Part shown: positions 18,391-57,504 of the stretch, in pieces | Numbering within the stretch: position 1 is the stretch's first letter | Layout: each line of letters begins with the position of its first letter | Assembly (NCBI GenBank): GCA_016946835.1 | Contig: JACVTC010000056.1 | Span: 17,501-81,500 of the forward strand | DNA length: 64,000 bases | Direction of reading: 5' to 3' | Source: Neocallimastix lanati (nom. inval.) | Taxonomy: Eukaryota > Neocallimastigomycota > Neocallimastigomycetes > Neocallimastigales > Neocallimastigaceae | Translations under genes and position numbers: made by a program | The notes under the pieces: model-generated | Seen by the model: only the letters and a program-made list of their open reading frames with translations | Databases searched by the model: none | Told to the model about the DNA's origin: nothing

Positions 18391-18457
18391 AAAAAAACCG
18401 ATTGGCAAAATTTCACCTATAAAATTAAATATTGAAACTTTAACAAGACAATTTAAA

Positions 18458-24347: not shown

Positions 24348-25217
24348 GAATGCATAAAAAGTAAATTTAATATTACTGATGTAGGTAAGGCAGATTATAT
24401 GATAGGTTTTAAATTTGAAAAACAAAATGATGGTTACTTAATCCATCAAGAAAAATATCTTAAAGATATTTTAAAAAGATTTAATATTGAAAAATATACA
24501 CCATGTTCAAATATGGTACTAAAAATAAATAAAGAATTACGAAAAAGAAGGTTTGATGATAACCTATATAGGCAAACTATAGGATGTTTGTTATACTTAA
24601 CTAGATGTACTAGGCCGGATATACTATTTGCTGTTAATAAAGCTTCTAGACGCACAAGTAATCCGAATTTAGAAGATTGGATTAATATTATAAAAATTTT
24701 CAGGTATTTAAAAGGTAATTCTAGATATGGTTTAAAATTTAAAAATAGTAATACATTTGACATCTATGTTGACGCAGATTATGGCGGAGACACTGAAACT
24801 AGGAAGTCAACAACAGGGTATATAATCATGATGAATGGAGCACCAACAAGTTGGTATTCAAAACTACAAAATTGTGTATCAACTTCTACTATGGAAAGCG
24901 AATATTATGCTATAGATGAATGTGCAAAACATTGTTTATGGTATAAAAATATTTTTAAAGAACTTAATATGAACATAAAATATGCAGAAATAAAAACAGA
25001 TAATAAAGCTGCTATTCAGAATTGTATCAATCAAACAATAAACCCTAAATCAAAACATATTGACATTAAATATCACCATATTAGGGACTTAATTATAAAG
25101 GGTGATATAAGACTGAAACATATTAGGACAAATGTAAACTTAGCTGATAGTTTTACTAAATACCTCAATAATACATTAATGACTAAATTCAGAGAATCCA
25201 TACTTACCAAGTTTTAA
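24348..25217 (+). pseudogene. H reverse transcriptase C-terminal part and RNase H
   Basis: The frame resumes after the solo LTR. It shows KADYMIGFKFEKQNDGYLIH, YRQTIGCLLYLTRCTRPDI (RT thumb/connection) and then the copia RNase H with VDADYGGDTETRKSTTGY, SWYSKLQNCVSTSTMESEYYA (catalytic Asp and Glu), KTDNKAA and the C-terminal KHIDIKYHHIRD. It ends at TAA 25215-25217 after TNVNLADSFTKYL, the normal copia end. From 24348 this segment is intact. It is a pseudogene only because the upstream parts are broken. Confidence 0.88.
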
Positions 25218-25239
25218 CAATATTAAACTTTAGGGGGAA
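25209..25239 (+). other. H stop-codon hairpin and polypurine tract
   Basis: AAGTTTTAA (25209-25217, containing the last two codons and the stop) can pair with TTAAACTT (25223-25230), with one bulged T and a 5-nt loop. The polypurine tract AGGGGGAA (25232-25239) follows and touches the 3' LTR. The tract primes plus-strand synthesis. The hairpin is AT-rich and would be weak alone, but it matches the layout of the other elements here. Confidence 0.65.
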
Positions 25240-25532
25240 TGTTAAAATATTATGAATTATTTATTAAAGTTTAATATTAATTATAGCTATTAATAATATA
25301 TTTTATGTATAAGTATTAGATTAAATATATGTATAATTTATGTATTGTATTTTGTGTATCTAATGTATTATGGCTAGATCATATAAATATATGATTGATT
25401 GTTAATGTGATACAGATATGGTTCAATCGTTTATTAGTATATGTATTACCATGTAAAAGTATATATAAAAAGTATTCATTATTAATATAATTAATAATAA
25501 AGTGTTCTAAAATATAGTAAAATAAAATAAAA
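25240..25532 (+). repeat. 3' LTR of element H
   Basis: 293 bp, TGTTAAAATATT to AAAATAAAATAAAA, followed by target duplication TTTAG. It differs from the 5' copy at a few bases (for example TTTAATAT for TTTTATAT near the start and AGTATTCATT for AGTATGCATT). Confidence 0.9.
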
Positions 25533-26017: not shown

Positions 26018-26650
26018 TGTAACGGAGGTGCTTCTATTGTAAAGGCGGGATGAGATATAGAAACACAGAAAGGAGAAAACTCAATAGATTTACACTATCT
26101 GTATAAATAATTCGTTTTATTAGAAATATTTTTTATTAATTATAAAATTTAAAATAATTATTAATATTAATCAACAAGGTAATATTTCGAATTACTTATA
26201 CGTTAATTATTATTAATAAAAGCACGAAGAAAAATATTTTCATTCGTGAAGTTCGCACTATTTATACTTTTAACGGAAAAACAGTTTTAACATGTAAAAA
26301 TAATTTTAAAGAAATATTTAGAAATATGTTTGTAATAATTAATAATGTAAAGTTTCTAGAATATAGATTTTAATTGATGAAAATGAATCTTATCAAAAAA
26401 GAATAAAATAATTTATATAATAAGAATTTCTAAATTCATTTCGGTTAAATTACAAACCGAAAGAATCTTTAACTTTCTATAATTTTATACAGAAAGAATA
26501 TTCAAGAAGATATTATTAATAATTAATAAAATAATTAATAAAATAATTATTTATGCAAAATGGGTTGAGGTGTGAGTCGAACCCATGAAGTATTGGTCAT
26601 GATCAATGTAACTAACCATTGAACCAAAGTTCTAATTTTACTAACTGAAG
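26018..26650 (-). repeat. 3' LTR of element B, main part
   Basis: On the plus strand it begins TGTAACGGAGGTGC; it is cut by element C after TGAAG (26646-26650). The remaining 11 bases, ending CGTTACA, are at 30607-30617, making a 644-bp LTR. It contains a reverse TATA motif at about 26259-26267 and a tRNA-like A/B-box module at 26567-26636. The left flank is element G. Confidence 0.88.
26567..26636 (-). promoter_or_regulatory. tRNA-like A-box/B-box module in B's 3' LTR
   Basis: On the sense (minus) strand the LTR carries TGGTTCAATGG (matches RNA polymerase III A-box consensus), 32 nt, then GGTTCGACTCA (B-box) and CACC. TCAATG and CATTGA flanking GTTAGTTA form a D-arm-like stem. A full cloverleaf is not evident, so this is a tRNA-derived or tRNA-mimicking segment and not a tRNA gene. 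The copy in the 5' LTR is at 42378-42446. Confidence 0.65.
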
Positions 26651-27546
26651 TGTAAGAAATTACTTATAAAATTAATTATAAATAATTTCTTAACTACAAA
26701 TTAACATTAATTATTACTAATTAACATTAATTTGAGAAAATAAAATTAAATATAATTAAATAAATATAAAATAATATAAATAAATAATTATACTTAACTT
26801 AAATATAAGATAGAGTTTATTATAGAAAGTTTATAATAAACAATAACACAAAAGGAATAAAAGACACAAATATTTATAAAAAATGTTTTATTAAAAGGGT
26901 TTTGTTTTATTAATTAATTATTTTATTTGAATTATTATTTATTATAAAAATTCTAAAATAATAACTCTTGATTTCTCGAAGAGAACTCAAGAGAATCAAA
27001 TATATATAAATTAATAATTAAATATTATTGGTTAAAATAAATACAATAATTTAATGTATTAAATTATTGTATTAAATAAGAAAGATAGATAAATTTTATA
27101 ATAAATTTATCTAAGTTTCTTAAATTGCTCCCTTTACTTAATGAATTTGTATAAATTAATTATCATAAAAGAAGTAGTAAGTTTAAAATAAAAATTATAA
27201 TTAACCAAAAAAATATAAAATTATATAATTTATTGAAAGTTTTGCTAACCTTAACTTTTTAACATCTAGAGAAAAGATTAGCGGAAAAACTCTAGATGAA
27301 TCAATAATAAGTAAAACCAATTAACTTGGGAAAACCTTAATATTGTTTTCTAACTAATATATAAATATAAGTGAATAAATAATTATAAATTAAATAAAAT
27401 AAATATAATTACTAAGTGTATAAATAAATATAAAGTTAAATAAAATGACTATATTATTAAATGAATAAATAAATATTAAGTTAAATAAATTATAATAACT
27501 GAGAAATGTAAATAAATTATTAATAAATTTATTTGTATTTCTTACA
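26651..27546 (-). repeat. 3' LTR of element C
   Basis: 896 bp, TGTAAGAAATTAC to GTATTTCTTACA, with 10-bp inverted ends (TGTAAGAAAT/ATTTCTTACA). Inside it, at about 27113-27140, TTTCTTAAATTGCTCCCTTT resembles the LTR/PPT junction TTTCTTACATTGCTCCTTTT, suggesting that part of the LTR arose by duplication across the PPT. Confidence 0.88.
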
Positions 27547-27589
27547 TTGCTCCTTTTCATTTGAATTGTTCAAAGAAAGAAGAACAATT
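27547..27589 (-). other. C polypurine tract with adjacent 8-bp hairpin
   Basis: The sense-strand purine tract GAAAAGGAGCAA touches the 3' LTR. Immediately upstream in the sense direction, GAACAATT...AATTGTTC?-type arms (27582-27589 against 27564-27571 on the plus strand, AATTGTTC/GAACAATT) pair perfectly over 8 bp with a 10-nt purine loop. This is the same position as the PPT hairpins of D, E, F, A and B. Confidence 0.75.
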
Positions 27590-28859
27590 TAAGAAATAAT
27601 AAATTAAGAAATATTAAAAAGAAATAAAATTTAAATAAAATTAAAATAAATATTTAATTGCAATTTCAATTTAAAAAATTGAAATTTAAATTTTGAATTA
27701 AAATTTATTTTAAATAAATAATTAAATGAACAATAATTTATAAATTTATATTATATATTATATATTTTGTATTAATAAATAAATAAATAATAATAATAAT
27801 TAATTTTACAATATATATATATTGTATATTATTCATTAAATGAATAAAAATAATAATAATAATTTGAATTTTAAATTATATAAATATGATATATAATTTT
27901 TCATATATATTAAATAAATAAATAATAATAATAATTTATAATTTTATATTATATTTATCTCTATATTATTCATTAGATGAATAAGTAAGTAATAATTTAA
28001 ATTATACATATGTATTATTTATTAAATAAATAAATAATAATATTTTATAATTTTTTTTTTTTTTTTTTTTTTATTATATTTTATATGTATAATTATACAA
28101 CAAATAAATAAATATAATTTATAATTTAATTATTTACTATTATTACACAGTAAATAAATAAAAGTTCATATTTTTAGTTTATTTACTTTATATAATATTT
28201 ATTTTTATTATTCAATAAACAAATGAATAATATTAATTTATAATTTTATATTATAAATATTATGTATATCTACTTAAATAAATAAATAATAATTTAAAAT
28301 TTTATAATTTTTTTATTATATTTTATTTATAATTTTTTAGTGTATAAGTTTATACACAAATATGAGAATTACTCTCATAATATTACATGTAGAAATTAAA
28401 TATATAATTAATAATAAATTATTTTATTATTTTATAATTATATATTAGTAAATAAATTAAATAATTAAATTTTATAATTTTGTCAACAAATAAACCATAA
28501 TAAATGGTTTAACAGAAAGCATTATCATTCAATCTAAATTGAACGGCTTCTGCTATTGGTGTTAGTGTTACACCTGTTGACTATTCTACATGTTAAATTA
28601 TTATTTATTTATAATTATTTTATTTATTTATTTATTTATTTATTACTTACTATTTATTATTTATTTATTTATTTATTTATTATTTATTTATTATTTATTT
28701 ATATTATCATTATTATAATTATTATTATTATATTATTATTATTATTAAAATTATTTATTATTTGAAATTATTTAATTATTAAAAATAAAAATTTCAAATA
28801 CTTATCTTTTTTAAACTATTTATTTATTTATTTAATTTATTTTGTTTATTTTTGTTTTC

Positions 28860-29115
28860 TTGTTTTTTATTTTTGTTTTGTTTTTGTTTTTGTTTTTTGT
28901 TTTTGTTTTTGTTTTTGGTTTGTTTTTGTTTTTGTTTTTGTTTTTGTTTTTGTTTTTGTTTTTGTTTTTGTTTTTGTTTTTGTTTTTGTTTTTGTTTTTG
29001 TTTTTGTTTTTGTTTTTGTTTTTGTTTTTGTTTTTGTTTTTGTTTTTGTTTTTGTTTTTGTTTTTGTTTTTGTTTTTGTTTTTGTTTTTGTTTTTGTTTT
29101 GTTTGTTTGTTTGTT
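28860..29115. repeat. GTTTTT hexanucleotide microsatellite
   Basis: About 30 uninterrupted GTTTTT units fill 28921-29100, with imperfect units before and (GTTT)n after. In the sense direction of element C this is a CAAAAA array. A six-base period keeps two frames open (FLFL... and CFCF...), which creates long spurious open frames. Confidence 0.95.
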
Positions 29116-29693
29116 GCTTATTTTATTTCATTTTATTTTATTTTATTTTATTTTTTTTTTTTTTTTTTTTAATAAGAAAATATATATATATAATGTATAT
29201 AATGTATATAATGTTATATATAAAAACAATTATATAATATTAAAATATAATATAAATATAATATTATAATAGATAAATATGTTATATAAAATAAAATAAA
29301 GTAAAATAGTTAGTATGTAATATTGTTAATTTTTATGAAATTTATAAAGACTTATTTTTAAAAGTAAATAGGCAGAGTAAACAGAATAAGTGTTGTCATA
29401 TTATTATAAAGTTATAATGTTTAATATATATAATAATAAAGAATTGTTAGTCAATGTAATAATAAATTAAACAAAATAAATAATATATATATGACATAAA
29501 CAAACATAAACAATGAAAAGAAAAATAAAAAATAAACAAAAAAAAATTTATAAATTTAAATTGAGAGAAAGAAAAAATTTCGTAAATAATATAAAATGAA
29601 TTTATTTAATTTAATTATTCCATTATAATTATAATTATTATTTTTTGTTATATTCATATTAAATTATTTATAAAATATTTTCTTCCTAAAAAG

Positions 29694-29705
29694 AAGAGTT
29701 ATTAT
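29694..29705 (-). other. Self-primer-binding site of element C
   Basis: AAGAGTTATTAT next to the 5' LTR reads ATAATAACTCTT on the sense strand. It is exactly complementary (12 of 12) to the sense sequence at 30013-30024 in the LTR, about 30 nt downstream of a TATA-like run at about 30055-30064 (minus strand). There is no TGG-type tRNA site. This is the Tf1-like self-priming layout. Confidence 0.75.
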
Positions 29706-30601
29706 TGTAAGAAATTACTTATAAAATTAATTATAAATAATTTCTTAACTACAAATTAACATTAATTATTACTAATTAACATTAATTTGAGAAAATAAAA
29801 TTAAATATAATTAAATAAATATAAAATAATATAAATAAATAATTATACTTAACTTAAATATAAGATAGAGTTTATTATAGAAAGTTTATAATAAACAATA
29901 ACACAAAAGGAATAAAAGACACAAATATTTATAAAAAATGTTTTATTAAAAGGGTTTTGTTTTATTAATTAATTATTTTATTTGAATTATTATTTATTAT
30001 AAAAATTCTAAAATAATAACTCTTGATTTCTCGAAGAGAACTCAAGAGAATCAAATATATATAAATTAATAATTAAATATTATTGGTTAAAATAAATACA
30101 ATAATTTAATGTATTAAATTATTGTATTAAATAAGAAAGATAGATAAATTTTATAATAAATTTATCTAAGTTTCTTAAATTGCTCCCTTTACTTAATGAA
30201 TTTGTATAAATTAATTATCATAAAAGAAGTAGTAAGTTTAAAATAAAAATTATAATTAACCAAAAAAATATAAAATTATATAATTTATTGAAAGTTTTGC
30301 TAACCTTAACTTTTTAACATCTAGAGAAAAGATTAGCGGAAAAACTCTAGATGAATCAATAATAAGTAAAACCAATTAACTTGGGAAAACCTTAATATTG
30401 TTTTCTAACTAATATATAAATATAAGTGAATAAATAATTATAAATTAAATAAAATAAATATAATTACTAAGTGTATAAATAAATATAAAGTTAAATAAAA
30501 TGACTATATTATTAAATGAATAAATAAATATTAAGTTAAATAAATTATAATAACTGAGAAATGTAAATAAATTATTAATAAATTTATTTGTATTTCTTAC
30601 A
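29706..30601 (-). repeat. 5' LTR of element C
   Basis: 896 bp, by eye identical to the 3' copy. It contains the predicted start of transcription near 30024 (minus strand) and an interrupted inverted repeat CTCTTGA...TCAAGAG at 30020-30048 just downstream of the TATA run. Confidence 0.88.
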
Positions 30602-30606
30602 TGAAG

Positions 30607-30617
30607 ATTTCGTTACA
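30607..30617 (-). repeat. Terminal 11 bp of B's 3' LTR, stranded between C and D
   Basis: ATTTCGTTACA follows the right-hand TGAAG of element C and ends at the point where B's PPT resumes at 37266, after element D. It proves that C and D both landed inside element B and fixes the end of B's LTR. Confidence 0.85.
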
Positions 30618-31101
30618 TGTGTAAAATATTTAATAATTTGAATACGTATTTAAATGTAATGTAATGTAAATTATTGTGGATAAAAATGTTTTCCAAATTT
30701 TTAATATAAATTTAAATGTATTCCAAATTATTAATTTAATTAATTTTCTCAAAAATGTATGACTAAATTATTTGGAGAATTTACATCATTATTACTCACT
30801 TTGAATCATGAAACTTGTAAATTAAAAATAATTAGTCATGAAACTTGTAAATTAAAAATAATTAGTCATAAATTAGTTAAATTAAAATAATCAAAGAAAA
30901 ATTGCCTTTTCCGTTTGTTTACAAAAACTTGCCGTTTTGTTTATTTATTTTTAGAAATATTAGATAGTTTTAAATAGTTTTTATATTAAAATAATTCATA
31001 ACATTTCATGTAATTTATTATTAAATGTAATTACAAATATATAATAATATTTTAGTTAGTTTATTACAATCTATTCAATTTAAATTTTAATTTTCAAAAA
31101 G

Positions 31102-31146
31102 TATAAAAAGAGTTAATTTTCAACTATTGAACGATAGTTGGAAAAT
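31102..31146 (+). promoter_or_regulatory. D core promoter and self-primer (5' end of transcript)
   Basis: TATAAAAAG at 31102-31110 is followed 25 nt later by AGTTGGAAAAT (31136-31146). That block is the exact reverse complement of the 11 bases right after the LTR. CAACTAT/ATAGTTG flanking it (31121-31140) form a 7-bp stem. In Tf1 the first 11 nt of the mRNA anneal to the PBS and are cut off as primer; the position relative to TATA fits that role. Confidence 0.75.
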
Positions 31147-31310
31147 AGTATAGAAAATAGTATAGTTTAGAATAGTATAGTTTAGTATAGATAATATAGA
31201 TAGTATAAATTTTATATTTTATTAATTAGTATTATAACTATTATTAGAATAGTTATTTTTTTATAAAACAAATTTTATTTTAAATTTTATTTTAAATTTT
31301 ATTTTAAAAT

Positions 31311-31361
31311 CTTAACTGCTAGTAGGCTTTCCGGTAAAGGACCCTACGGTACCCAGTTAAG
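31311..31361 (+). ncRNA. Structured RNA island in D's LTR (R/U5)
   Basis: Three nested stems can form: CTTAACTG (31311-31318) with CAGTTAAG (31354-31361), GTAGG (31322-31326) with CCTAC (31343-31347), and CTTT (31327-31330) with AAAG (31336-31339) closed by CCGGT. The patch is far richer in G and C than the rest of the LTR and is repeated in the 3' LTR at 37011-37061. It lies between the predicted self-primer and its binding site, where Tf1 has its U5-IR stem. It is a cis element of the transcript; I do not claim an independent RNA. Confidence 0.55.
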
Positions 31362-31562
31362 TGGTTGTTGATTTTAGAATAGTTAAATTCAACAAATAAG
31401 AAATATTAATAAAAGGATTTTTTTTATAAAACAAAAAAAAATTAAATTAGTTTTTTAGTTTTAGTGTTTTAGTTAATAATTAATTACAGTGTTAATATAA
31501 AATAAATTGTGTAAAATAAAATAGTCTGTCCACACCGACCTAAGCTATTATTTTATTTTACA

Positions 31563-31573
31563 ATTTTCCAACT
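31563..31573 (+). other. Self-primer-binding site of element D
   Basis: ATTTTCCAACT directly follows the 5' LTR. Its reverse complement AGTTGGAAAAT occurs at 31136-31146, just after the TATA box. No TGG-type tRNA site is present in the 150-nt leader (31563-31713). Confidence 0.75.
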
Positions 31574-36319: not shown

Positions 36320-37262
36320 TGTAAAATATTTAATAATTTGAATACGTATTTAAATGTAATGTAATGTAAATTATTGTGGATAAAAATGTTTTCCAAATTT
36401 TTAATATAAATTTAAATGTATTCCAAATTATTAATTTAATTAATTTTCTCAAAAATGTATGACTAAATTATTTGGAGAATTTACATCATTATTACTCACT
36501 TTGAATCATGAAACTTGTAAATTAAAAATAATTAGTCATGAAACTTGTAAATTAAAAATAATTAGTCATAAATTAGTTAAATTAAAATAATCAAAGAAAA
36601 ATTGCCTTTTCCGTTTGTTTACAAAAACTTGCCGTTTTGTTTATTTATTTTTAGAAATATTAGATAGTTTTAAATAGTTTTTATATTAAAATAATTCATA
36701 ACATTTCATGTAATTTATTATTAAATGTAATTACAAATATATAATAATATTTTAGTTAGTTTATTACAATCTATTCAATTTAAATTTTAATTTTCAAAAA
36801 GTATAAAAAGAGTTAATTTTCAACTATTGAACGATAGTTGGAAAATAGTATAGAAAATAGTATAGTTTAGAATAGTATAGTTTAGTATAGATAATATAGA
36901 TAGTATAAATTTTATATTTTATTAATTAGTATTATAACTATTATTAGAATAGTTATTTTTTTATAAAACAAATTTTATTTTAAATTTTATTTTAAATTTT
37001 ATTTTAAAATCTTAACTGCTAGTAGGCTTTCCGGTAAAGGACCCTACGGTACCCAGTTAAGTGGTTGTTGATTTTAGAATAGTTAAATTCAACAAATAAG
37101 AAATATTAATAAAAGGATTTTTTTTATAAAACAAAAAAAAATTAAATTAGTTTTTTAGTTTTAGTGTTTTAGTTAATAATTAATTACAGTGTTAATATAA
37201 AATAAATTGTGTAAAATAAAATAGTCTGTCCACACCGACCTAAGCTATTATTTTATTTTACA
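36320..37262 (+). repeat. 3' LTR of element D
   Basis: 943 bp, by eye identical to 30620-31562, followed by ACATG (37263-37267), the target duplication. Confidence 0.93.
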
Positions 37263-37599: not shown

Positions 37600-40038
37600 T
37601 TAGTTATTATTGTTAAATTCTTTTAAGAGTTTAGGGCAATTTAAGTTTTCTTCGGGTTCCCAAGATGCTTCAGATAAAGGATAGCCTTTCCATTTAATAA
37701 GATATTGGGTTTTGCCATAATGTTTTCTTTTATCAAGAATTTTTTCAACTTCGTATTCTTCTTCATTGTCAATAATTATCGGTGGTGGTGGTTCTTTCTT
37801 TCGTCCAAAGTGATCTTCATAAAATGGTTCAAGTTCAGAAACATGTATTACAGGATGGATTCTGATTTCTTTTGGTAAGTCTAACTTATATGAAACGGGA
37901 GAAATTTTCTTAATGATTTTATATGGACCAAGTTTTCTGGGTTTAAGTTTTTTATTTCCATTATGAATTATAAGTGAACTATTAATCCACACTTTATCAC
38001 CAGGTTCAAAATATGGAGCTTCAATACGATGTTTGTTTGCAAATTCTTCTTGCTTTTTTCTTGCTTGTTGTAAATTTCCATTAAGTGTTTTAAATAATTC
38101 TGAAAGGTCTTTTGTAAATTCATCAGCTCTAGGAACATCTGTACTGTTTGGAATTGATGGTGAATATCTTGGATTATATCCATAGTTTGCATAAAAAGGT
38201 GAGTGCTTAATTGATTCTTGAATTGAATTATTATAACTGAATTCTGCTAGGAATAAAAAATTATACCAATCAGAACCTTTAAAGTTTGAATAACATCTTA
38301 AGTATTGTTCAATAACGGAGTTCACCCTCTCCGTTAAACCATTGGTTTGGTGATGGAAGGGAGAAGCAAGTTTCGTTGTGATATTGAAAGATTTACAAAT
38401 AGCTGACCAAAATTTTGAAGTGAATTGAGAACCTTTATCAGAAAAAAAATCGGAGGGTGGTTTATGAATACGAAAGAGATCATTTAGGTCTTTCTTGGGA
38501 ACAAATGAAACAGAAGCAGCAGCTGGAGATATAGATTTTCTAATAAATTTTTTGTCTTCATTTTCTTTAATATATTTCTTCGAAGCTAGAGGTTCTTTTT
38601 CAGTTAAGGGGTAGATTGGATCATAATGAAGTTTTTCATTTTGTTTGGGTTTAATTTCGCTATCAAAAGGACAATAAGGAGGTGATTCATTAGTGTATAT
38701 TCCACTGAAAGTGTCTATAAATGGAAGTAATTTTTTTGGTAATGATTTGCTTATTTTATTATTGATTTCTTCATTTTCATTTTTGACATTTTGTTTAGTA
38801 GTATTTAAAGGAACATAAGAAGTAAAGGAGTTAGGGATGATTATACAATTTTCAACACAATAATTGGAATTAAATCTTAAGACTTTATTTTTGAAGTCAA
38901 TATCAGGATTGTGAGTAGAAATCCATTCGAAACCTAAAATAGCACAATAAGAAGGAAGGTCAACCACATAGAATTGAGTATTACATTTATAGTTATTATA
39001 AGTGATGGAAATAGGAAGAGTTTTTCCAAGAATAGTTTGCTTTCCACCAATGCCAGATACCTTAGGGAAATTAGTTTTAGTTGAATACGGGATATTATTT
39101 TCTTTAATATAGTAGATATCCATTAAATTGATTTGAGAACCAGTATCGAGAAGAATTTTAGCAGTAGAATTTGTATTATCAATACTTAAAGAAAATTCGT
39201 AAATAGGAAGATTTGAGTCAGAAACTCTAGGTCTAGAAATAGGTTTTGATTCGGGATTAGAAATATAAGTGCTACTTGATGAAGGTTTATTTTTGTATTT
39301 ATTTTTAAGTGGACAATTGTCGAGAGAATGTTCAGAGGATCCACAATATAAACAAAGATTTTTTCTTCTTCTTCTTTCTTTTTCTTCTTGAGATAGAGGT
39401 CCATGAGGTTTGGATTTAAATTGCTTTTGGAAAAAGAATGATTTTTTGCTCTTTTTATTTTTATTATTATTACTATTATTTGAATTTTGACCTTGAAGAT
39501 TGGAGAATTGTCTATGAGTAGAAATACGATTATCGATTCTAGATGCAATTGTTTGCATAGCAAGGAGGGTTTGAGGTCCAGGAAACATTTCTAAAATTCT
39601 AGTAGCAATATGGTCATGTAGACCGGCAAGAAAGGCGTCCATCTTGGCTTCTTCATTCCAGGAAGATTCATCGGCGTATTTATTAAATTCTAAAATATAA
39701 TTTCTGACTTCACCAATTCGTTTTTGTTTGATTGTTCTTAATTTCTGGTTGGCAATAAAGGTAGAGTCGTGGCTTCCAAATACTGATTTTAATCTAGCAA
39801 TGAATTGATTATAATTAAGGAGACAAGGATCTTGGTTTTCAATAAGGGTAGCAGCCCAATTCATGGCGTTTCCATACAAACGAGAAATGATATAGATTAC
39901 TTTAGCTTCATCGTTTGCAAATCTTTCCGGTTGAATCATAAAAATAAGTTCCATTTTAGCTAGAAATCCTTTAAAGAATCGACGATCACCAGCAAAACCG
40001 TCCTTAAAGGTAGGATTTTCTTGGTTATAGTTGTCCAT
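37600..40038 (-). CDS. B ORF: Gag-protease fused to integrase end and chromodomain, RT missing
   Basis: 812 residues from ATG 40038. Gag: [40 protein letters not shown]; zinc knuckle [14 protein letters not shown]; protease [12 protein letters not shown]. The RT start is recognisable ([34 protein letters not shown]). At about 38485-38495 the frame jumps to [20 protein letters not shown] inside integrase. All of RT catalysis, RNase H, the integrase zinc finger and the first catalytic aspartate are gone, yet the frame stays open. The rest of integrase ([10 protein letters not shown]), GPY/F and a chromodomain ([20 protein letters not shown]) follow. It cannot self-replicate but could supply Gag and protease. 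Confidence 0.9.
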
Positions 40039-41336: not shown

Positions 41337-41828
41337 GTTAAGGTAATGCAAGTTTTATCTTAATAGGGTAGTACAAATTTAAATTGAATTATTTGATCGG
41401 GTAGTACAAGAATTTTTGTTATAAGAATTAATTTCAACAACCATAGGATTAGGATTATCCGGTAATATAATAGATTCAAAGGATTGAATTATATAATAGT
41501 GAAGGTAACTCAAAACAGACAAGGTGATAATTTGAATAGGAATCAATAGGCAGTAATTATTCGTCTGGGAGGAGATAAAATCCGAGATTAAAAGATATAG
41601 AAGTCCGGTATTAAAGAGATAGTAGATAAGAAGATTTATTCAAAGATTATTAGACTAAGATAGAGAGAACCGGAAGAGTAGGTATTCGTTCTTTAATAGT
41701 AGAATAGTAAAAGTAGAAACCCAACGATTGCCAAAAGATATTGAGAAGGTAGAATTCCTAAAAGTATAGTAGAATGTCTGCGGGATAGCGTAAAGGTATT
41801 GAGGGCTTGGATTAGCAGGTGCTTTTAT
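40039..41828 (-). other. 5' leader of element B
   Basis: A 1.8-kb untranslated leader. Next to the ORF are two copies of GGTAGTAGAGATTCCAA about 31 bp apart (near 40118 and 40149). From about 40205 to 40960 lies a more complex patch with several stems (for example CTTACG/CGTAAG near 40767-40787 and a bulged 12-bp pair involving AGTACTATT near 40657-40710). It has no coding frame and might be an old nested insertion. Poly-T runs sit at about 41082-41110 and 41298-41331. The purine-rich segment 41500-41800 precedes the self-primer site. Confidence 0.6.
41819..41828 (-). other. Self-primer-binding site of element B
   Basis: The sense sequence ATAAAAGCAC directly after the 5' LTR is the exact complement of GTGCTTTTAT in the LTR (42036-42027). 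That LTR block is 32 nt downstream of the TATA motif at 42077-42069. Element A has the same arrangement with one substitution matched on both sides. Confidence 0.75.
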
Positions 41829-42026
41829 TGTAACGGAGGTGCTTCTATTGTAAAGGCGGGATGAGATATAGAAACACAGAAAGGAGAAAACTCAATAGGT
41901 TTACACTATCTGTATAAATAATTCGTTTTATTAGAAATATTTTTTATTAATTATAAAATTTAAAATAATTATTAATATTAATCAACAAGGTAATATTTCG
42001 AATTACTTATACGTTAATTATTATTA

Positions 42027-42077
42027 ATAAAAGCACGAAGAAAAATATTTTCATTCGTGAAGTTCGCACTATTTATA
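42027..42077 (-). promoter_or_regulatory. B core promoter and self-primer
   Basis: On the sense strand TATAAATAG (42077-42069), 32 nt, then GTGCTTTTAT (42036-42027), complementary to the 10 bases after the LTR. The spacing matches the usual TATA-to-start distance, so the block is the likely 5' end of the transcript. Confidence 0.7.
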
Positions 42078-42377
42078 CTTTTAACGGAAAAACAGTTTTA
42101 ACATGTAAAAATAATTTTAAAGAAATATTTAGAAATATGTTTGTAATAATTAATAATGTAAAGTTTCTAGAATATAGATTTTAATTGATGAAAATGAATC
42201 TTATCAAAAAAGAATAAAATAATTTATATAATAAGAATTTCTAAATTCATTTCGGTTAAATTACAAACCGAAAGAATCTTTAACTTTCTATAATTTTATA
42301 CAGAAAGAATATTCAAGAAGATATTATTAATAATTAATAAAATAATTAATAAAATAATTATTTATGCAAAATGGGTT

Positions 42378-42446
42378 GAGGTGTGAGTCGAACCCATGAA
42401 GTATTGGTCATGATCAATGTAACTAACCATTGAACCAAAGTTCTAA
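42378..42446 (-). promoter_or_regulatory. tRNA-like A-box/B-box module in B's 5' LTR
   Basis: Same sequence as at 26567-26636: TGGTTCAATGG, 32 nt, GGTTCGACTCA on the sense strand, in the first 90 or so bases of U3. It could act as an RNA polymerase III promoter element, an integration landmark or a tRNA mimic; which of these is not shown by sequence. Confidence 0.65.
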
Positions 42447-42459
42447 TTTTACTAACTAT

Positions 42460-42805: not shown

Positions 42806-43577
42806 TGTAAAGATATTATTAATATCTTTAAATAATTTTAATTAAATTTAATCATAAATTTAAGTAAAATTAAAATAAATTTATTTGAAATCACGTGTAT
42901 AAAATTATTGAAAATATTTTTAACATAATTTCGATTTTTTTCCCAATCATACTAATAAATTAAAAATTTCTCTTGTGAAACTAGTATTTGAAAATCATTT
43001 CTTTTTATGTAATTTAATTTAAATAATAAGAGTTAAGGTTTTTCACAAGATAAATTAACAACATGAAACTATGCAATTAGTCATGTTGAAACTTACGGCA
43101 TTTTATGCTAAATTTATATTAAATAATTATGACAACTTTTATATTATTTTTAAATAGAAAATATATAATAAATTTACTAATAATATTTAAATAATAAATA
43201 AATAATAAATGAACTCAATTAGAATTGATTATATTTATTTTAGTTATTAATTATAATTCTCTTTATTTAGTAATAGTTAATTATTTATTATTAGTTTAGG
43301 TTAGTACTGTTTTAAATAAATAGCTAGATAATATAATTCAATAGGAATTATATATTATAAATGCAATAAGATAAAAATATAAATAGTTATCAAATTTCAT
43401 GTATTTTAATCGATGTAATTGTTATTAACGATTTCTTGTTAATAACACTTTAAAATAAATAAAGATTTTAATATTTAAAAAATTAATAAAACTTGTTCTT
43501 TAAAACTATTATTTTGTGTTTTAGTGTTATTATTGAAGTGTTGATTTATAATCTATTTTTTTTATCAAAACTTTATA
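42806..43577 (+). repeat. 5' LTR of element F
   Basis: 772 bp, starting TGTAAAGATATT and ending AAAACTTTATA. TATA box at 43378-43386 and self-primer block at 43415-43425. The end is set by divergence between copies and by the TTTAT duplication. Confidence 0.92.
43378..43425 (+). promoter_or_regulatory. F core promoter and self-primer
   Basis: TATAAATAG (43378-43386), 28 nt, then GTAATTGTTAT (43415-43425), the exact reverse complement of the 11 bases following the LTR. This is the predicted 5' end of the mRNA and primer for minus-strand DNA. Confidence 0.75.
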
Positions 43578-43588
43578 ATAACAATTAC
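43578..43588 (+). other. Self-primer-binding site of element F
   Basis: ATAACAATTAC directly after the LTR, complementary over 11 of 11 to 43415-43425. No TGG-type site is present. Confidence 0.75.
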
Positions 43589-43779
43589 CTTTTAAACAAA
43601 CAAAAATACGTTATAAATCAATAAAAAATATTTAAAACACGTGACTCTTTTGTGGCTTATTTGTGGCTTGAATCAAGATATTTTTACCAGATATTTTTAC
43701 CAAGGATTTTTAGAAGCTACCCACTTTTGACACTACCAACTTTGGAATACTCACAATTTTAGATTATTGCTACCAGCTT

Positions 43780-44120: not shown

Positions 44121-44453
44121 TTACCAGACTCATACCATACCATTTATCATATTGGGACACTTGTGCAAGACTTTTGAATAAAATTACCAGATTACGTGAG
44201 AAATCCATAATATTATTTGGAATTAAATTTTAACCAGTAAGATACTATATTATAATATTCAGTTTACTCGACGGCACCATTACAATTGGAGAGAGCCAGT
44301 TCGACTTTACATACAATATTATAATAGAAATATCTTTTTATTAGAACATCTATTTCAAATATCATTATTTAAATTATTCAAAAGTAAATAATAAGTTACA
44401 AATTGAACGAAGTTGAAGATTTAATTCAAAAATTCGAAAACCTTGATTTAGAA

Positions 44454-47400
44454 ATGAACCAAGCAAATAATCAAGGCTTCTTAAGAAACACTCAGAAAAC
44501 AGTAAATGATCCACCACTGTTTTCTGGTATCAAGAGGGAATTCGACGGGTTCCTAACCAGAGCCGAAATTGCTATGGAATCCAACCCACATGGAATTAAT
44601 AATGACATCGCAAAAGTCAAATTCATAATTTCTTATTTAATTGGAGAACCTTTAGACTGGGCTTCGTCTTTGAGACGCAACAATGACGAAATTTTGAATT
44701 CCTATGAAAATTTCATTAATGAACTTAGAGCTCGTTATGGTGAAGAAGAAGTTAATACTGTAATTGCTAATGGGAAACTTTGTTCAATCCGTCAACATAA
44801 GTTTGGCCGCGTTAACGATTACATTAATGAATTCAATAAAGTTGCAAGAAACTCAGACTTCAACGAGTCTGCAAAAATATACATGTTTATCAAAGGATTA
44901 CATTATAAAATGAGAGAACATCTTGCCGTGGTCAATCCGAACCCAAACAATTTAAGAGCTTTGTTTACTGACGTTATTAGCATTGAGAGTTTAACCAAAA
45001 GACACAGTATTAATGAATTTTATTTTCATCAATACAATCACCGAAACAACGCTAGTTCCAGTACACAACTCACTAATAATGATCCCATGGAAGTTGACCT
45101 CTATCGAATCAAGAGAGGTCAAAGGAATACCAACTATTTCCCATCCAACAAGAAATTGTACCAGGAGAATGTTAACTCTAAGGAAGAAGAAAGAAGAAAA
45201 GGTCTTTGCTACTATTGTAAGCAACCAGGGCATCTTAAATTTAATTGCCCGAACAAGAAGAGGCCCGCTACAGTTAAAATGATCAACAAGAAAGAAAGAA
45301 ATGATAATATTGCATCTACTAGCTTAAGAAGAATCAGAAGAATCAACAGCCAAGAAGATATTTTGAAAGTCAGAAAAATTGTTGAAGAGCAAAACTCACT
45401 CTTGACCAAGAAAAGTAACATTATTGATTTTTATATCAAAACAAACGATACAGAAGAAGTAAAGGCAAGAGTTTTGATTGATTCTGGATCAGATCTTAAC
45501 TTTATTCACCCAGAATTTGCGAAGGCTTTTGGAATCAAAACCCAACAAATTGAAGAACCATTCCGTGTTACTGGTCTTGGTTACGGAATATCAACAGTTA
45601 AAAAGGAAACGGAGAAGTGCATTTTACGTTTAAAAAATCACTTAGAAATCATTCAATTGTATGTACTCAGAATTCCTGATGTTGATATTATTTTAGGTCT
45701 ACCTTGGATTGAGAAGCATTCGCCTTATAATTACCACGACGCAAAGAAGATCTCCTTTGGCTCAGGATTTTGCGCTAGACACTGTAATAACGGTAAAAGA
45801 AAAAGAAAGAACAAGATCAAGAACAAGAAAAAGAACAAAGGAAAAGAATCTGCTACCGACTTGGAAGAAAATAAAATTATTGAAGACTCAAGAAAAAGAA
45901 AATCTTTCTTTGAATCCGATTCCGAATCTGATTCTGAAGAAGAAATTTCTATTCGTGGCCGCCGAACTCGTATTAGAACTTGTACTGAATTTATTAATAG
46001 TGATAGCGATAGTGATTTTAATGATACTTTTATGTTAGATAATTTTAGTGATAGCATTAGTGATAGCGATAATTTTAGTGATAGTGATGATATTATTGTT
46101 ATGAATTGTGATAGTAAAATTAGTAAAAATAGTTTAAAGATCTTAAAGAAAATTTGTGAATCAAGTAAATGTAAGAAATTAAATGTAATTGAAAAATGTA
46201 ATAATGAAAATAATAATTTAAATAAAGATGATGAAAAGGTCGAAGTACCTGAAATCTATTTGATGTTTAAAGAAGTGTTTAATGAAAATAATTGTAATGT
46301 GTTACCTCCGCATCGTAATTATGATTGTGAGATTAAATTAAAAGATAATTGTAGTTTATTTTATGGACCGTTGTATCCTTTAACTGAGACGGAGAGAGAA
46401 GAATTAAAGAAATATTTAGAAGAAAATTTAAAAAAGGGTTTTATTAGAAAATCTTCTTCTCCCGCTGGAGCACCTATTTTATTTGTTAGAAAAAAGGATG
46501 GTACATATAGATTAGTTATTGATTATAGAAAATTAAATGAAATGACCATCCGTAACTCTTACCCTCTTCCTTTAATTAGTGAATTGTTGGATAGAGTTAA
46601 AGGTGCTAAATATTTTACTAAGTTAGATTTAAAATCTGCCTATAACTTAGTAAGAATTAAAGAAGGTGACGAGTACAAAACTGCCTTTCGCACAAGATAT
46701 GGGCACTTTGAATATCTCGTTATGCCTTTTGGGCTTAAGAATGCCCCTGCTACATTCCAACATTTTATAAATGATGTTCTCAGTGATTACTTAGATGATT
46801 TTGTAATCTCTTATATTGATGACATTTTAATTTATTCTAATACTTTAGAAGAACATCATGTACATGTCAAGAAAGTTTTAAGAAAATTGTTAGAGAATCA
46901 TTTAGTTGTTAAATTAGAAAAGTGTGAATTTGATGTAACTGAAACTACTTTTCTTGGTTATGTTTTATCAAGAGATGGAATTAAAATGGATAAAGAAAAA
47001 GTTAAAGCAATTTTAGATTGGCCTGTTCCAACAAACGTTAAAGAAATTCAATCGTTTATTGGACTTTGTAATTATTACAGAATTTTTATTAAAGACTTTG
47101 CGAAAATTGCAAATCCTCTCCACAAATTAACTAGAAAAAATGTTCCTTTTAATTGGAGTTCTGAACAACAAAAAGCGTTTGATACTTTAAAAGAATTATT
47201 TACTACTGCTCCTATTTTGAAACATCCTGATAGCAACAAACAATTCATTGTTGAAACTGATGCTAGTAATTTTGCTGTTGGTGCAATTCTTTCTCAGGAA
47301 TTTGATGGGCATTTGCATCCAATTGCTTTTATTTCTACTAGCTTAACTAAATCCCAAAGAAATTACCCTATCTATGACAAAGAACTTCTTGCTATTAAAG

Positions 47401-49223
47401 TTGCATTGGAAGGATGGAGACATTACTTAGAAGGAGCTCGCCATCAGTTTATTATTTATACTGATCATAAGAATTTAACTTTCCCTCGAAAACCTGAACT
47501 TCTTTCCCAACGCCAAATTCGTTGGTATGAATTCTTATCTAGATTTGATTTTAAACTAATTTACAGAGCTGGTAAAAAGTCAGGTAAACCAGATATTTTA
47601 TCAAGACGTAGTGATCATTTATTTGCTAGTGTTCGTCCTATTTCATGCGTTATTAATTCATGTAGTTTTAAGAATGATTCTTTAATCTCCTCTATTCATG
47701 ATTCTCTAGCTAATGATGAATTCTATTGCAAAATAACTGAATTTCTTAAAAATGATAATTCAAAAGATCCCCCTTTTAGTAAAATCGATAAATTTTCTCT
47801 TGACAAAAATGGTTATTTACTTTTTGAAAATTTAATTTATGTTCCCAATAAAATTAGAATAAGAGTTTTAGAACTCCATCATGACTCTATTTCTGCTGGT
47901 CATTTTGGAATTAATAAAACTATTGAACTTATTTCTCGTAATTTCTGGTGGCCTAAATTACAAAAAGATGTTAAAATGTTTATTAAATCTTGTGAAATTT
48001 GTTCAAAATCCAAAATCCCAAGACATAAGCCATATGGTTTACTTTCTCCACTTTATACACCAAATAGAGCCTGGTCTGCTATCTCTATGGATTTTATTGT
48101 TGAACTTCCGAAATCCAAAGATATGACCACTATAATGGTTGTTGTGGATCGCTTAACTAAAATGGCTCATTTTATACCATTTAGATGTCTTCCTACTGCT
48201 TCTATTGCTGCTGATTCTTTCATTGCTAATATTTTTAAACTTCATGGTTTCCCCGATTCTATTATTTCTGATCGTGGTTCTCAATTTACCTCTGATTTTT
48301 GGAATCGTCTTTGCTCTCTTTTAAATATTAAGCATTCTTTTTCTACTGCTAATCACCCGCAGACTGATGGTCAAACGGAGAGGGTGAACTCGATATTGGA
48401 ACAATATCTTCGTTGTTTCATTAACGAAAAACAAAATAATTGGTTTGATTTATTACCTTTTGCAGAATTTTCTTATAACAATACTTTACAACAATCAATA
48501 AATCAATCACCATTTTTTGCAAATTATGGATTTAATCCAAAGTTTAATCCTGAGATTCCTTCAAACGAGAATCCACATAGAGCTGAAAAAAGAATATTGA
48601 ATATTAACGAAAACATAAAGTTTTTAAAAGAAAATTTAGAACAAGCGAAAAAGACTTATAAAAAATATGCAGATTTAAAAAGAATAGATTCTCCTGATTT
48701 TAAAGTAGGAAATAAAGTTTATCTTTTAAAGGGTAATACAACAAAGAAAAATAAAAAATTATCTGATCAACTAATAGGACCCTTTGAAATCATTAGAAAA
48801 GTTAGTGATTTAGCGTATGAACTTAAACTTCCTAATAATATGCGCTGTCACCCTGTATTCCATGTTTCGCTCCTCGAACCTTACCATGAAAATGAATTCC
48901 CAAACAGAAGAAATACTCGTAGAAGAAATATTAATCTTACTACGGATACAATTAATAGAAGTCCTGAAAGAATAATTAAAATGAAAACTTTTAACAATAA
49001 AAATCGTTACTTGATTAAATGGAAAGGATGCGATTCTAATGAAAATACTTGGATCGATGAAGATCAAATTTTTGATAAACAATTAATACAAGAATACTAT
49101 AGAAAAGAAAAGAAGAATAAATCTTCGAATATTAACAATGAATTTTGCCAACTACCTGAAGATTCGAACGAGTACTATGTTAGGCATAAATATCAACCTT
49201 TTGTGATCGATCTTCCTTCCTAA
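44454..49223 (+). CDS. F Gag-Pol polyprotein with chromodomain
   Basis: A single frame of 1589 residues from ATG 44454. It is open upstream to 44388, with TTG at 44403 where a related start may have been lost. Gag: LFSGIKREFDGFLTRAEIA and PLDWASSLRRN; zinc knuckle C-Y-Y-C-K-Q-P-G-H-L-K-F-N-C near 45207-45248; protease LIDSGSDLNFIHPEFA near 45474-45521. A K/R-rich then Ser-Asp-Glu-rich spacer covers about 45790-46110. RT: SSSPAGAPILFVRKKDG, LDLKSAYNLVR, YIDDILIYS near 46813-46839. RNase H: FIVETDASNFAVGAILSQ. Integrase: H-H-C-C, SMDFIVELPKS, IISDRGSQFTSDFW, QTDGQTERVN. GPY/F: LIGPFEIIRKVSDLAYELKL. Chromodomain: NRYLIKWKGCDSNENTWIDE. Gag and Pol are fused without a frameshift, as in Tf1. Confidence 0.95.
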   Translation: MNQANNQGFLRNTQKTVNDPPLFSGIKREFDGFLTRAEIAMESNPHGINNDIAKVKFIISYLIGEPLDWASSLRRNNDEILNSYENFINELRARYGEEEVNTVIANGKLCSIRQHKFGRVNDYINEFNKVARNSDFNESAKIYMFIKGLHYKMREHLAVVNPNPNNLRALFTDVISIESLTKRHSINEFYFHQYNHRNNASSSTQLTNNDPMEVDLYRIKRGQRNTNYFPSNKKLYQENVNSKEEERRKGLCYYCKQPGHLKFNCPNKKRPATVKMINKKERNDNIASTSLRRIRRINSQEDILKVRKIVEEQNSLLTKKSNIIDFYIKTNDTEEVKARVLIDSGSDLNFIHPEFAKAFGIKTQQIEEPFRVTGLGYGISTVKKETEKCILRLKNHLEIIQLYVLRIPDVDIILGLPWIEKHSPYNYHDAKKISFGSGFCARHCNNGKRKRKNKIKNKKKNKGKESATDLEENKIIEDSRKRKSFFESDSESDSEEEISIRGRRTRIRTCTEFINSDSDSDFNDTFMLDNFSDSISDSDNFSDSDDIIVMNCDSKISKNSLKILKKICESSKCKKLNVIEKCNNENNNLNKDDEKVEVPEIYLMFKEVFNENNCNVLPPHRNYDCEIKLKDNCSLFYGPLYPLTETEREELKKYLEENLKKGFIRKSSSPAGAPILFVRKKDGTYRLVIDYRKLNEMTIRNSYPLPLISELLDRVKGAKYFTKLDLKSAYNLVRIKEGDEYKTAFRTRYGHFEYLVMPFGLKNAPATFQHFINDVLSDYLDDFVISYIDDILIYSNTLEEHHVHVKKVLRKLLENHLVVKLEKCEFDVTETTFLGYVLSRDGIKMDKEKVKAILDWPVPTNVKEIQSFIGLCNYYRIFIKDFAKIANPLHKLTRKNVPFNWSSEQQKAFDTLKELFTTAPILKHPDSNKQFIVETDASNFAVGAILSQEFDGHLHPIAFISTSLTKSQRNYPIYDKELLAIKVALEGWRHYLEGARHQFIIYTDHKNLTFPRKPELLSQRQIRWYEFLSRFDFKLIYRAGKKSGKPDILSRRSDHLFASVRPISCVINSCSFKNDSLISSIHDSLANDEFYCKITEFLKNDNSKDPPFSKIDKFSLDKNGYLLFENLIYVPNKIRIRVLELHHDSISAGHFGINKTIELISRNFWWPKLQKDVKMFIKSCEICSKSKIPRHKPYGLLSPLYTPNRAWSAISMDFIVELPKSKDMTTIMVVVDRLTKMAHFIPFRCLPTASIAADSFIANIFKLHGFPDSIISDRGSQFTSDFWNRLCSLLNIKHSFSTANHPQTDGQTERVNSILEQYLRCFINEKQNNWFDLLPFAEFSYNNTLQQSINQSPFFANYGFNPKFNPEIPSNENPHRAEKRILNINENIKFLKENLEQAKKTYKKYADLKRIDSPDFKVGNKVYLLKGNTTKKNKKLSDQLIGPFEIIRKVSDLAYELKLPNNMRCHPVFHVSLLEPYHENEFPNRRNTRRRNINLTTDTINRSPERIIKMKTFNNKNRYLIKWKGCDSNENTWIDEDQIFDKQLIQEYYRKEKKNKSSNINNEFCQLPEDSNEYYVRHKYQPFVIDLPS

Positions 49224-53089: not shown

Positions 53090-56039
<2,950 letters not shown>

Positions 56040-56425: not shown

Positions 56426-56904
56426 TTATTATAATCATTAATTTTGATTGAATAATAAATATACAATATAATTAATTATTAAAAGAAGTAATATTTAATT
56501 TCAATATAAATAATTTTAATTTCAAGGATGGCTATATGGATTATTGAAAATATTAATAATTTTAATATATAGTAAAATTCAAGGGTTCCGATTGAATTTA
56601 TAAATTCCTGCATGAATTTTGGTAGAAAAATTTATAGTCTTGGTAAGTGTTTTCCAAAAATAGTAGAAAATGGGATTCCTTAACGGGGTTCCAAAAAGAG
56701 TAGTAGAGAATGGGATTCCTTAACGGGGTTCCAAAAAAGAATAGTAGTAAATGGGATTCCTTAACGGGGTTCCAAAAATAGTAGTAGAAAATGGGATTCC
56801 TTAACGGGGTTCCAAAAATAGTAGTAGAAAATGGGATTCCTTAACGGGGTTCCAAAAAGAGTAAAAGTGCAAAGGTATTGTGCTTAGTTTAGTGGTGTTT
56901 TTAT
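56040..56904 (-). other. 5' leader of element A with 40-bp tandem repeat
   Basis: Five copies of a 40-bp unit with GGGATTCCTTAACGGGGTTC on the plus strand occupy about 56660-56866 (unit starts near 56672, 56712, 56753, 56793 and 56833). The arms GGAACCCC and related words give each unit self-complementary potential. Between them and the ORF are poly-T runs (56041-56062, 56367-56423) and an ATTATTA-rich stretch (56070-56366). No gene is seen. Confidence 0.85.
56895..56904 (-). other. Self-primer-binding site of element A
   Basis: Sense ATAAAAACAC directly after the 5' LTR is the exact complement of GTGTTTTTAT at 57096-57087 in the LTR. Compared with element B both partners changed (C to T in the primer, G to A in the site), which keeps pairing. 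Confidence 0.78.
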
Positions 56905-57086
56905 TGTAACGAATATTGGAATATCCGTGTTTTAAAGAGTGTAACACAATAGGTAAGCACTTTTTGATTAATAAGTAATTTGGTTTTTTAAAATATAGTT
57001 TTATTAATTAAGAGATTTAAAAATATTAATTATAAAGATTAATTATTGTAATATTTCGAATTACTTATTAATTAATTCAATAATTA

Positions 57087-57139
57087 ATAAAAACACAATA
57101 TTTTGAATCTTTTGGCTGCGAAATTCACTCCTATTTATA
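57087..57139 (-). promoter_or_regulatory. A core promoter and self-primer
   Basis: Sense strand TATAAATAG (57139-57131), 34 nt, GTGTTTTTAT (57096-57087), complementary to the 10 bases after the LTR. Predicted 5' end of the transcript. Confidence 0.72.
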
Positions 57140-57411
57140 GTTTTTCAAAATTTAAATCCATAAAAATTTAAAACCATAAAATCATTAAAAAGTTTCATAA
57201 AAATTGATTATTTTCGGTTAAAAAGAATCTAAAAGAAATAATGATAAAAGATAAATTAAAATAGAATTTCTATCTGATTTGTTTCTATTAATTTCTAAGA
57301 ATTTCTTTTGTTAATTTTTTCAGAAATTTATACAGAAACAAATACAGAAACAAATACAGAAATGAAGTATAAAAATTCTTTAAAATTTAAATGATATAAA
57401 ATTTTAGTAAA

Positions 57412-57476
57412 GGTGTGAGTCGAACCCTAGTGGTTCAGGCTGAGGTCATAGTGACTAACCACTATGCCAGCATTCT
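57412..57476 (-). promoter_or_regulatory. tRNA-like A-box/B-box module in A's 5' LTR
   Basis: Identical to 52673-52737 on the sense strand: A-box TGGCATAGTGG and B-box GGTTCGACTCA separated by 32 nt, lying within the first 95 bases of U3, upstream of the TATA box. Confidence 0.7.
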
Positions 57477-57504
57477 AATTTCTAATTTTTTAAGATTCGT
57501 TACA

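What the first reader, a model, noticed from the sequence alone, without database searches (positions are those of the whole stretch)
31102..31573. Five sequence-distinct LTR families share Tf1-like self-priming geometry
In D, F, A, B and C the bases right after the 5' LTR (31563-31573, 43578-43588, 56904-56895, 41828-41819, 29705-29694) are perfectly complementary (11, 11, 10, 10, 12 nt) to a block in the same LTR. That block starts 25, 28, 34, 32 and about 30 nt downstream of a TATA box, where the mRNA should begin. A and B differ by one base in the primer and by the compensating base in the site. None has a TGG-type tRNA site. In Tf1 and sushi elements the 5' end of the mRNA folds back as primer. 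Finding it in five families including a non-coding one suggests it is the rule for the chromoviruses of this genome.
Basis: partly seen in the sequence, partly recalled or inferred. Interest (0 to 1): 0.9.

Follow-up and report, generated by a model that had tools for sequence, protein, structure and literature searches.

The report
Self-primed gut-fungus retrotransposons
Five young jumping elements in this fungal genome each carry a start-of-message sequence that can fold back and prime its own copying into DNA, a known trick of one retrotransposon group that is seen here in several families with matching paired changes.

Summary
All five primer/site pairs exist as stated: 11, 11, 10, 10 and 12 nt, perfect, starting at the first base behind the 5' LTR. 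Chance is rejected: 2-12 of 4000 shuffled LTRs match. Nine of ten further chromovirus-type families sampled gave an LTR pair and all nine show the same, so 14 of 14 in total, in six covarying primer types. A second RNA helix, joining U5 to the stretch 10-16 nt behind the site, has changes on both sides in 16 of 19 pairs; it matches a described arm of the Tf1 'pretzel', but C lacks it. In contrast, two families of another Ty3 clade have TGG sites, one a 17-nt complement of tRNA-Ala. The mechanism is the known one of the Tf1/sushi group. New are members from a probable anaerobic gut fungus, the covariation, and self-priming sites in deletion derivatives (A, B) and a non-coding family (C). Not shown: transcript starts and RNase H cleavage. 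Nested folding favours the primer helix in only 2 of 14 RNAs. Known in kind, well supported.

The parts
30620..31562 (+). D 5' LTR (TGTAAAAT...TTTTACA); partner LTR 36320-37262; 5-bp target duplication ACATG
   Evidence: self-BLAST 100% over 944 nt; flanks
31102..31109 (+). D TATA box, first T 34 nt before the self-primer block
31136..31146 (+). D self-primer block AGTTGGAAAAT, inferred mRNA 5' end
31563..31573 (+). D primer-binding site ATTTTCCAACT, 11-nt perfect complement of the block
31528..31548 (+). D U5 strand of the second helix
31586..31606 (+). D post-PBS strand of the second helix
31714..36286 (+). D gag/protease ORF and RT/RNaseH/integrase/SH3_Tf2-1/chromodomain ORF
   Evidence: Pfam
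42806..43577 (+). F 5' LTR; partner ends at 50032; target duplication TTTAT; LTR ends in TA instead of CA
43415..43425 (+). F self-primer block GTAATTGTTAT
43578..43588 (+). F primer-binding site ATAACAATTAC
43541..43561 (+). F U5 strand of the second helix (post-PBS strand 43601-43621)
44403..49223 (+). F gag-pol-chromodomain ORF, 1606 aa
   Evidence: Pfam
56905..57504 (-). A 5' LTR; partner 52166-52765; target duplication ATAAT
57087..57096 (-). A self-primer block GTGTTTTTAT
56895..56904 (-). A primer-binding site ATAAAAACAC
56944..56964 (-). A U5 strand of the second helix (post-PBS strand 56883-56863)
53547..56039 (-). A ORF, gag-protease-integrase; runs in frame across a missing RT/RNaseH part
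41829..42457 (-). B 5' LTR (about 15 nt shorter at its start than family f1406, flank lost); partner 26018-26646, 99.84% identical
42027..42036 (-). B self-primer block GTGCTTTTAT
41819..41828 (-). B primer-binding site ATAAAAGCAC
41890..41910 (-). B U5 strand of the second helix (post-PBS strand 41804-41784)
37600..40038 (-). B ORF: gag and a protease-like part (by alignment; no Pfam protease match) joined in frame to the integrase C-terminal part, SH3 and chromodomain
29706..30601 (-). C 5' LTR; partner 26651-27547; target duplication TGAAG
30013..30024 (-). C self-primer block AAGAGTTATTAT
29694..29705 (-). C primer-binding site ATAATAACTCTT, 12-nt perfect complement
27548..29693 (-). C interior; of frames of 50 aa or more only short or low-complexity ones

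Best explanation
The five elements are Tf1/sushi-type Ty3 chromoviruses, or deletion or non-coding passengers of such elements, that start reverse transcription with their own mRNA. Transcription starts at the block 34-43 nt behind the first T of the TATA box. The first 10-12 nt of the mRNA pair with the site directly behind the 5' LTR, while a U5 strand pairs with the stretch 10-16 nt behind that site and presents it. By analogy with Tf1, the element's RNase H then nicks behind the primer and its 3' end is extended. Shown by sequence: the perfect complementarity, its position, its covariation between families, the covarying second helix (not in C), the absence of TGG sites. Inferred: transcript start, RNase H nick, cis or trans pairing, and that C and the RT-less A and B borrow enzymes from full-length relatives.
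For: Exact sites in 5 of 5 window elements. 14 of 14 chromovirus-type elements with an LTR pair, six primer types. Chance rejected. Primer-site permutation: 1 of 720. Second helix on 11 rows: 90% of cells paired, 0 of 500 shuffles as high on that, on cells with double changes (67) and on the covariation score; 16 of 19 pairs changed on both sides, 4 of 500 shuffles as high; slid controls 35-47% paired. Pyrimidine/purine at -1/+1 of the block in 14 of 14. SH3_Tf2-1 and chromodomain in D, F and B. RT tree: D and F with Orpinomyces, other fungal, Ambystoma and Planoprotostelium elements (99/99), apart from the TGG-site clade. The primer:site helix and PBS-flanking helices fit the published description of Tf1 (passages of PMC10085805, PMC7175516).
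Against: No transcript data. In nested folding the primer:site helix is favoured only in D and f1570 (mean pair probability 0.97, 0.96); in the other 12 of 14 it is 0.05 or less, partly because a 5' hairpin takes up the primer's 3' half in F, f1650, f1646, A and C. C shows no second helix beyond chance (67 of 300 shuffles as good), f1570 only weakly (19 of 300). In a cross test the own partner is best in 8 of 11 cases from either side, not in all. The third pretzel arm (LTR end with R/U5) beats shuffles only in D, f1646, B and C of 11. The second helix is not specific to self-primers: the tRNA-type family f1335 has a comparable one (0 of 300; f1277 10 of 300).
Confidence: 0.9

Rival explanations
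1. Chance or low-complexity complementarity in a window of about 21% GC.
For: Equally long complementary runs start at a few later offsets; f1335 has runs up to 15 nt at offsets 10-79. The primers are AT-rich.
Against: 2-12 of 4000 shuffled LTRs match for the five window elements (2-27 over the 12 self-primed families tested), and the real match is always anchored at offset 0. Six primer types covary. No run of 7 nt or more at offsets 0-12 in the two TGG-site families, whose LTRs were held only in part.
Confidence: 0.02
2. The elements are primed by a tRNA, by its 3' end or an internal stretch, and the LTR copy of the site has another role.
For: tRNA-type priming sites exist in this genome: family f1335 has a 17-nt complement of the tRNA-Ala(TGC) 3' end plus CCA.
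Against: No TGG in the first 24 nt behind any of the five LTRs. Sites differ between families exactly as their LTR blocks do, which a tRNA would not explain. Internal tRNA stretches were not tested.
Confidence: 0.03
3. Priming is by the same leader but mainly in trans, from a second packaged mRNA, because in cis the 5' hairpin hides the primer.
For: 5' hairpins beyond shuffles in F, f1650, C and more weakly f1646, A; low pair probability in cis in 12 of 14; A, B and C need helper enzymes anyway.
Against: D and f1570 favour the cis helix; no hairpin beyond shuffles in D, f1570, f1538, B, f1404, f1439; nested folding cannot show the crossing pretzel.
Confidence: 0.25

Closest known systems
Tf1/Tf2 of Schizosaccharomyces pombe (founders of the Tf1/sushi chromovirus group)
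   Same: A complement (11 nt in Tf1, PMC7175516 passage) between the presumed mRNA 5' end and a site at the 5' LTR edge; a further helix between U5 and the stretch behind the site; chromodomain and SH3_Tf2-1 domain in D and F.
   Different: Primers of 10, 11 or 12 nt; start and cleavage unproven here; second helix absent in C; A and B lack RT, C all genes.
Tj1, Tosmo1-3 and Tcry1 of other fission yeasts (passages of PMC4600332, PMC10085805)
   Same: Self-primer and, for these in PMC10085805, pretzel inferred from sequence in a similar way.
   Different: The passages seen report inspection of predicted structures; here compensatory change between families was counted.
Tcn1-clade elements of mosses and Cryptococcus (passages of PMC6317226, PMC7175516)
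   Same: Chromoviruses related to Tf1/sushi, mostly predicted to self-prime.
   Different: Other hosts; SM-Tcn1 of Selaginella showed neither type of site (PMC2864245 passage), and Skipper chromoviruses of dictyostelids show no such LTR complement (PMC5006619 passage).
tRNA-type Ty3 family f1335 of this genome
   Same: Same host, LTR element, comparable U5 helix.
   Different: TGG site complementary to tRNA-Ala; no SH3_Tf2-1 or chromodomain match up to its stop codon; no self-complement at the site.

Membership tests
Tf1/sushi group of chromoviruses | Ty3-type pol with chromodomain behind integrase | tested here: met
   D and F. B keeps the chromodomain without RT; A's ORF has neither RT nor chromodomain match; C codes nothing
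Tf1/sushi group of chromoviruses | RT falls with the group | tested here: inconclusive
   D and F group with fungal, Ambystoma and Planoprotostelium elements, 99/99, apart from Lolium, Nannochloris and the TGG-site clade; no named Tf1 or sushi sequence was in the tree
Tf1/sushi group of chromoviruses | No TGG-type tRNA site; site at the LTR edge complementary to a block near the start of R | tested here: met
   complement at the LTR edge in 14 of 14; no TGG in the first 24 nt of the five window elements
[quoted passage not shown]
   only TATA spacing and a pyrimidine/purine start in 14 of 14
Tf1/sushi group of chromoviruses | Pretzel: primer:PBS helix plus two PBS-flanking helices | tested here: inconclusive
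   primer:PBS complement met; U5:post-PBS helix in 11 of 13 (5 or fewer of 300 shuffles as good) and covarying; third arm in 4 of 11 (5 or fewer of 150)
Tf1/sushi group of chromoviruses | RNase H nick behind the primer | not testable with these tools
   RNase H domains present in D and F; nick not observable
tRNA-primed LTR retrotransposon | TGG site just behind the 5' LTR | tested here: not met
   0 of 5 window elements; met in f1335 and f1277, the two other-clade families examined

The most novel reading that the evidence does not exclude
The site is rewritten from the capped leader at each round of replication. In all 14 families the pairing is perfect, and in all 14 the base right behind the site is C, while C makes up 16% of these regions. 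If the plus strand copies the retained mRNA primer up to and including its cap guanosine, each new copy would gain a perfect site followed by C, so primer and site would co-evolve by copying rather than by slow paired mutation. Cautions: four of the six primer types look related at that base, the base behind a longest match cannot pair with the base before the block, and a related contig (L099) has the D-type site followed by A. That the Tf1 primer is not removed is known to me here only from a cited title.
Probability: 0.15. Interest if true: 0.6.

Novelty: new member of a known kind. Interest (0 to 1): 0.42.

Why it matters
It gives a natural covariation record for self-primed reverse transcription: several young families in one genome with different primers and matching sites, next to a Ty3 clade with tRNA-type sites that serves as an internal contrast. 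It extends the mechanism to what is probably an anaerobic gut fungus, and shows deletion and non-coding passengers keeping their own self-primer, which fits a cis requirement. The covarying second helix makes structural claims testable by probing and sequencing.

Tried and rejected
Led nowhere: viral-contig scans with D pol and with an alignment (none). Genome contigs gave five contigs in bacterial or archaeal MAG records that encode relatives, most cut at the LTR; only L099 shows a D-type site behind an LTR-like end, and no primer block was found in it. L113 and L116 gave no boundary; family f1400 gave no LTR pair. The copia-like element 18076-25532 gave no clear site. Papers PMC109269 and PMC1369541 are not held, so Tf1 structural details come from passages of later papers. 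Rejected: chance; TGG-type tRNA priming of the five. Not done: comparison with internal tRNA stretches; covariation of the third arm.

Choices to be known. In f1646 and f1414 (4 nt), f1339 (3), A (2), D and f1404 (1) the LTR pair match ran on past the boundary, and I set the LTR end at TTACA. The second-helix windows were chosen by me after seeing the duplexes; of the 14, rows f1414 and f1339 (near-duplicates) and C (no arm) were left out. For L079, L114 and L115 the boundary was found together with the match, so they are not in the 14 of 14. The LTRs of f1335 and f1277 were compared over 728 and 301 nt only. L040 stands for f1277; its RT equals that of the f1277 locus in 160 of 160 residues. 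For f1277 the C-terminus was not examined.

Full report
Setting. The window lies in contig C511 of a 199-Mb assembly and averages 21% GC. Its chromovirus RTs group with one from Orpinomyces and with metagenome proteins, and relatives sit in MAG contigs, so I infer an anaerobic gut fungus; no record names it. Self-BLAST delimits D, C, F, B and A by their LTR pairs: 100% identity in four, 99.84% in B. D, C, F and A have 5-bp target duplications. C and D sit inside and at the edge of B's 3' LTR.

Observation. Each claimed block and site is present, exact, and starts at the first base behind the 5' LTR. Shuffled LTRs contain the needed complement in 2 to 12 of 4000 trials for the five. Equally long runs exist at a few later offsets, because the DNA is AT-rich, so the anchored position and the covariation carry the argument.

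Wider sample. I chose ten further elements by SH3_Tf2-1 or gag score and frame length and fetched both ends. Nine of ten gave an LTR pair, and all nine have a perfect 10- or 11-nt self-complement at offset 0; the tenth, f1400, gave no pair. With the window's five this is 14 of 14. Three more elements whose ends were not delimited by a pair agree (L079, L114, L115); two pieces gave nothing (L113, L116). Among copies, five of five fetched D-type 5' LTR copies other than D (L004-L008) keep block and site. Of ten C-type LTRs all keep the block; two keep a perfect site, two have a decayed one, and six are followed by other DNA.

Covariation of the primer. There are six primer types: AGTTGGAAAAT, GTAATTGTTAT, GTATTAGTTAT, GTGTTTTTAT, GTGCTTTTAT and AAGAGTTATTAT. 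The real primer-site assignment gives 65 of 65 pairs and no other of 720 does.

Second helix. A duplex search between the last 110 nt of the LTR and the 60 nt behind the site beats dinucleotide shuffles in 11 of 13 families (5 or fewer of 300), with f1570 at 19 and C at 67 of 300. Crossed between 11 families, the own partner is best in 8 as U5 strand and in 8 as post-PBS strand. The helices share one plan: 11 bp, a 2x2 loop, 8 bp. On 11 rows 90% of cells pair; 16 of 19 pairs change on both sides (4 of 500 shuffles as high); no shuffle of 500 reaches the covariation score; slid controls pair in 35-47%. This corresponds to a PBS-flanking arm described for Tf1 (PMC10085805 passages). It is not special to self-primers: f1335 has a comparable arm.

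Internal contrast. Families f1335 and f1277, of another Ty3 clade, have TGG sites. f1335 has no SH3_Tf2-1 or chromodomain match up to its stop codon; the f1277 C-terminus was not examined. The f1335 site is complementary over 17 nt to the 3' end of tRNA-Ala(TGC) plus CCA: a T-arm-to-acceptor pattern with up to one mismatch has 48 places, 38 of them exact, and ARAGORN and Rfam call the two fetched ones tRNAs, ARAGORN tRNA-Ala. The 14-mer complementary to its site occurs 594 times forward and 608 reverse with up to one mismatch, tRNA genes included. The RT tree separates this clade from D and F (100/100).

How it most likely works. Transcription starts at the block (inferred from TATA spacing and a pyrimidine/purine step in 14 of 14). 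The leader pairs with the site; the U5 arm presents the site; RNase H nicks behind the primer; RT extends it. The pairing rests on covariation, the rest is taken from Tf1 (PMC7175516 passage). Against a simple cis picture, nested folding favours the primer helix in 2 of 14, and a 5' hairpin competes in 5 of 11 families tested. The primer and U5 helices cross, which nested folding cannot model; trans pairing is the main rival.

Passengers. Compared with the relative P0049, B lacks residues 561-1142 in frame and so joins gag and a protease-like part to the integrase C-terminal part with SH3 and chromodomain; A lacks about 527-924, the RT/RNaseH part. C has no coding interior beyond short or low-complexity frames. 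All keep perfect self-primers, so the signal is kept in cis while enzymes presumably come from relatives such as f1414 (A type) and f1406 (B type). The 40 scored matches to C's LTR were all at 92-100% identity; none was followed up for a coding relative.

Novelty. Self-priming is described as a common feature of Tf1/sushi elements in fungi, vertebrates and some plants (passages of PMC10085805, PMC6317226, PMC4600332). Searches for Neocallimastigomycota or anaerobic fungi with retrotransposons or transposable elements, non-autonomous with self-priming and self-primer with compensatory listed no paper that by title and abstract start reports this in gut fungi or counts such covariation. These searches cover open-licence full texts only, and the listings were cut (15 of 31 and 12 of 1,155). 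I file it as a new member of a known kind.

Noticed in passing
locus L089, position 1107; genome-wide: An abundant Ty3 clade has a tRNA-Ala(TGC)-type primer site; about 1200 near-exact copies of the 14-mer complementary to it occur in the genome, tRNA genes included.
   Followed up: yes
37600-40038 (-): B is an in-frame deletion joining gag to integrase C-terminus and chromodomain; about 48 of the 150 scored SH3_Tf2-1 matches lie in open frames of 823-826 aa, as if this shortened protein were kept.
   Followed up: partly
53547-56039 (-): A lacks RT and RNase H in frame but keeps gag, protease and integrase matches.
   Followed up: partly
base behind each primer site, e.g. 31574, 43589: C follows the site in 14 of 14 families; possible imprint of the mRNA cap, with a counter-hint in L099.
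   Followed up: partly
R region behind the block, e.g. 43420-43447: A 5' hairpin that includes the primer's 3' half, strong in F, f1650 and C, weaker in f1646 and A, not beyond shuffles in the six others tested.
   Followed up: partly
26646-30619: C is inserted about 15 bp inside B's 3' LTR and D at that LTR's edge: nested recent insertions.
   Followed up: partly
43577 and 50032: Both F LTRs end in TA rather than CA although they are identical and flanked by a 5-bp duplication.
   Followed up: no
18076-25532: A copia-like element with an RVT_2 match and several short frames; its priming site was not resolved.
   Followed up: no
58178-63526: A 1782-aa RT/integrase ORF without SH3_Tf2-1 or chromodomain match, of the TGG-site clade by RT tree; no LTR pair for it seen in the window.
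   Followed up: partly
L096-L100: Contigs encoding relatives of these fungal retrotransposons sit in public bacterial and archaeal MAG records, probably contamination.
   Followed up: no
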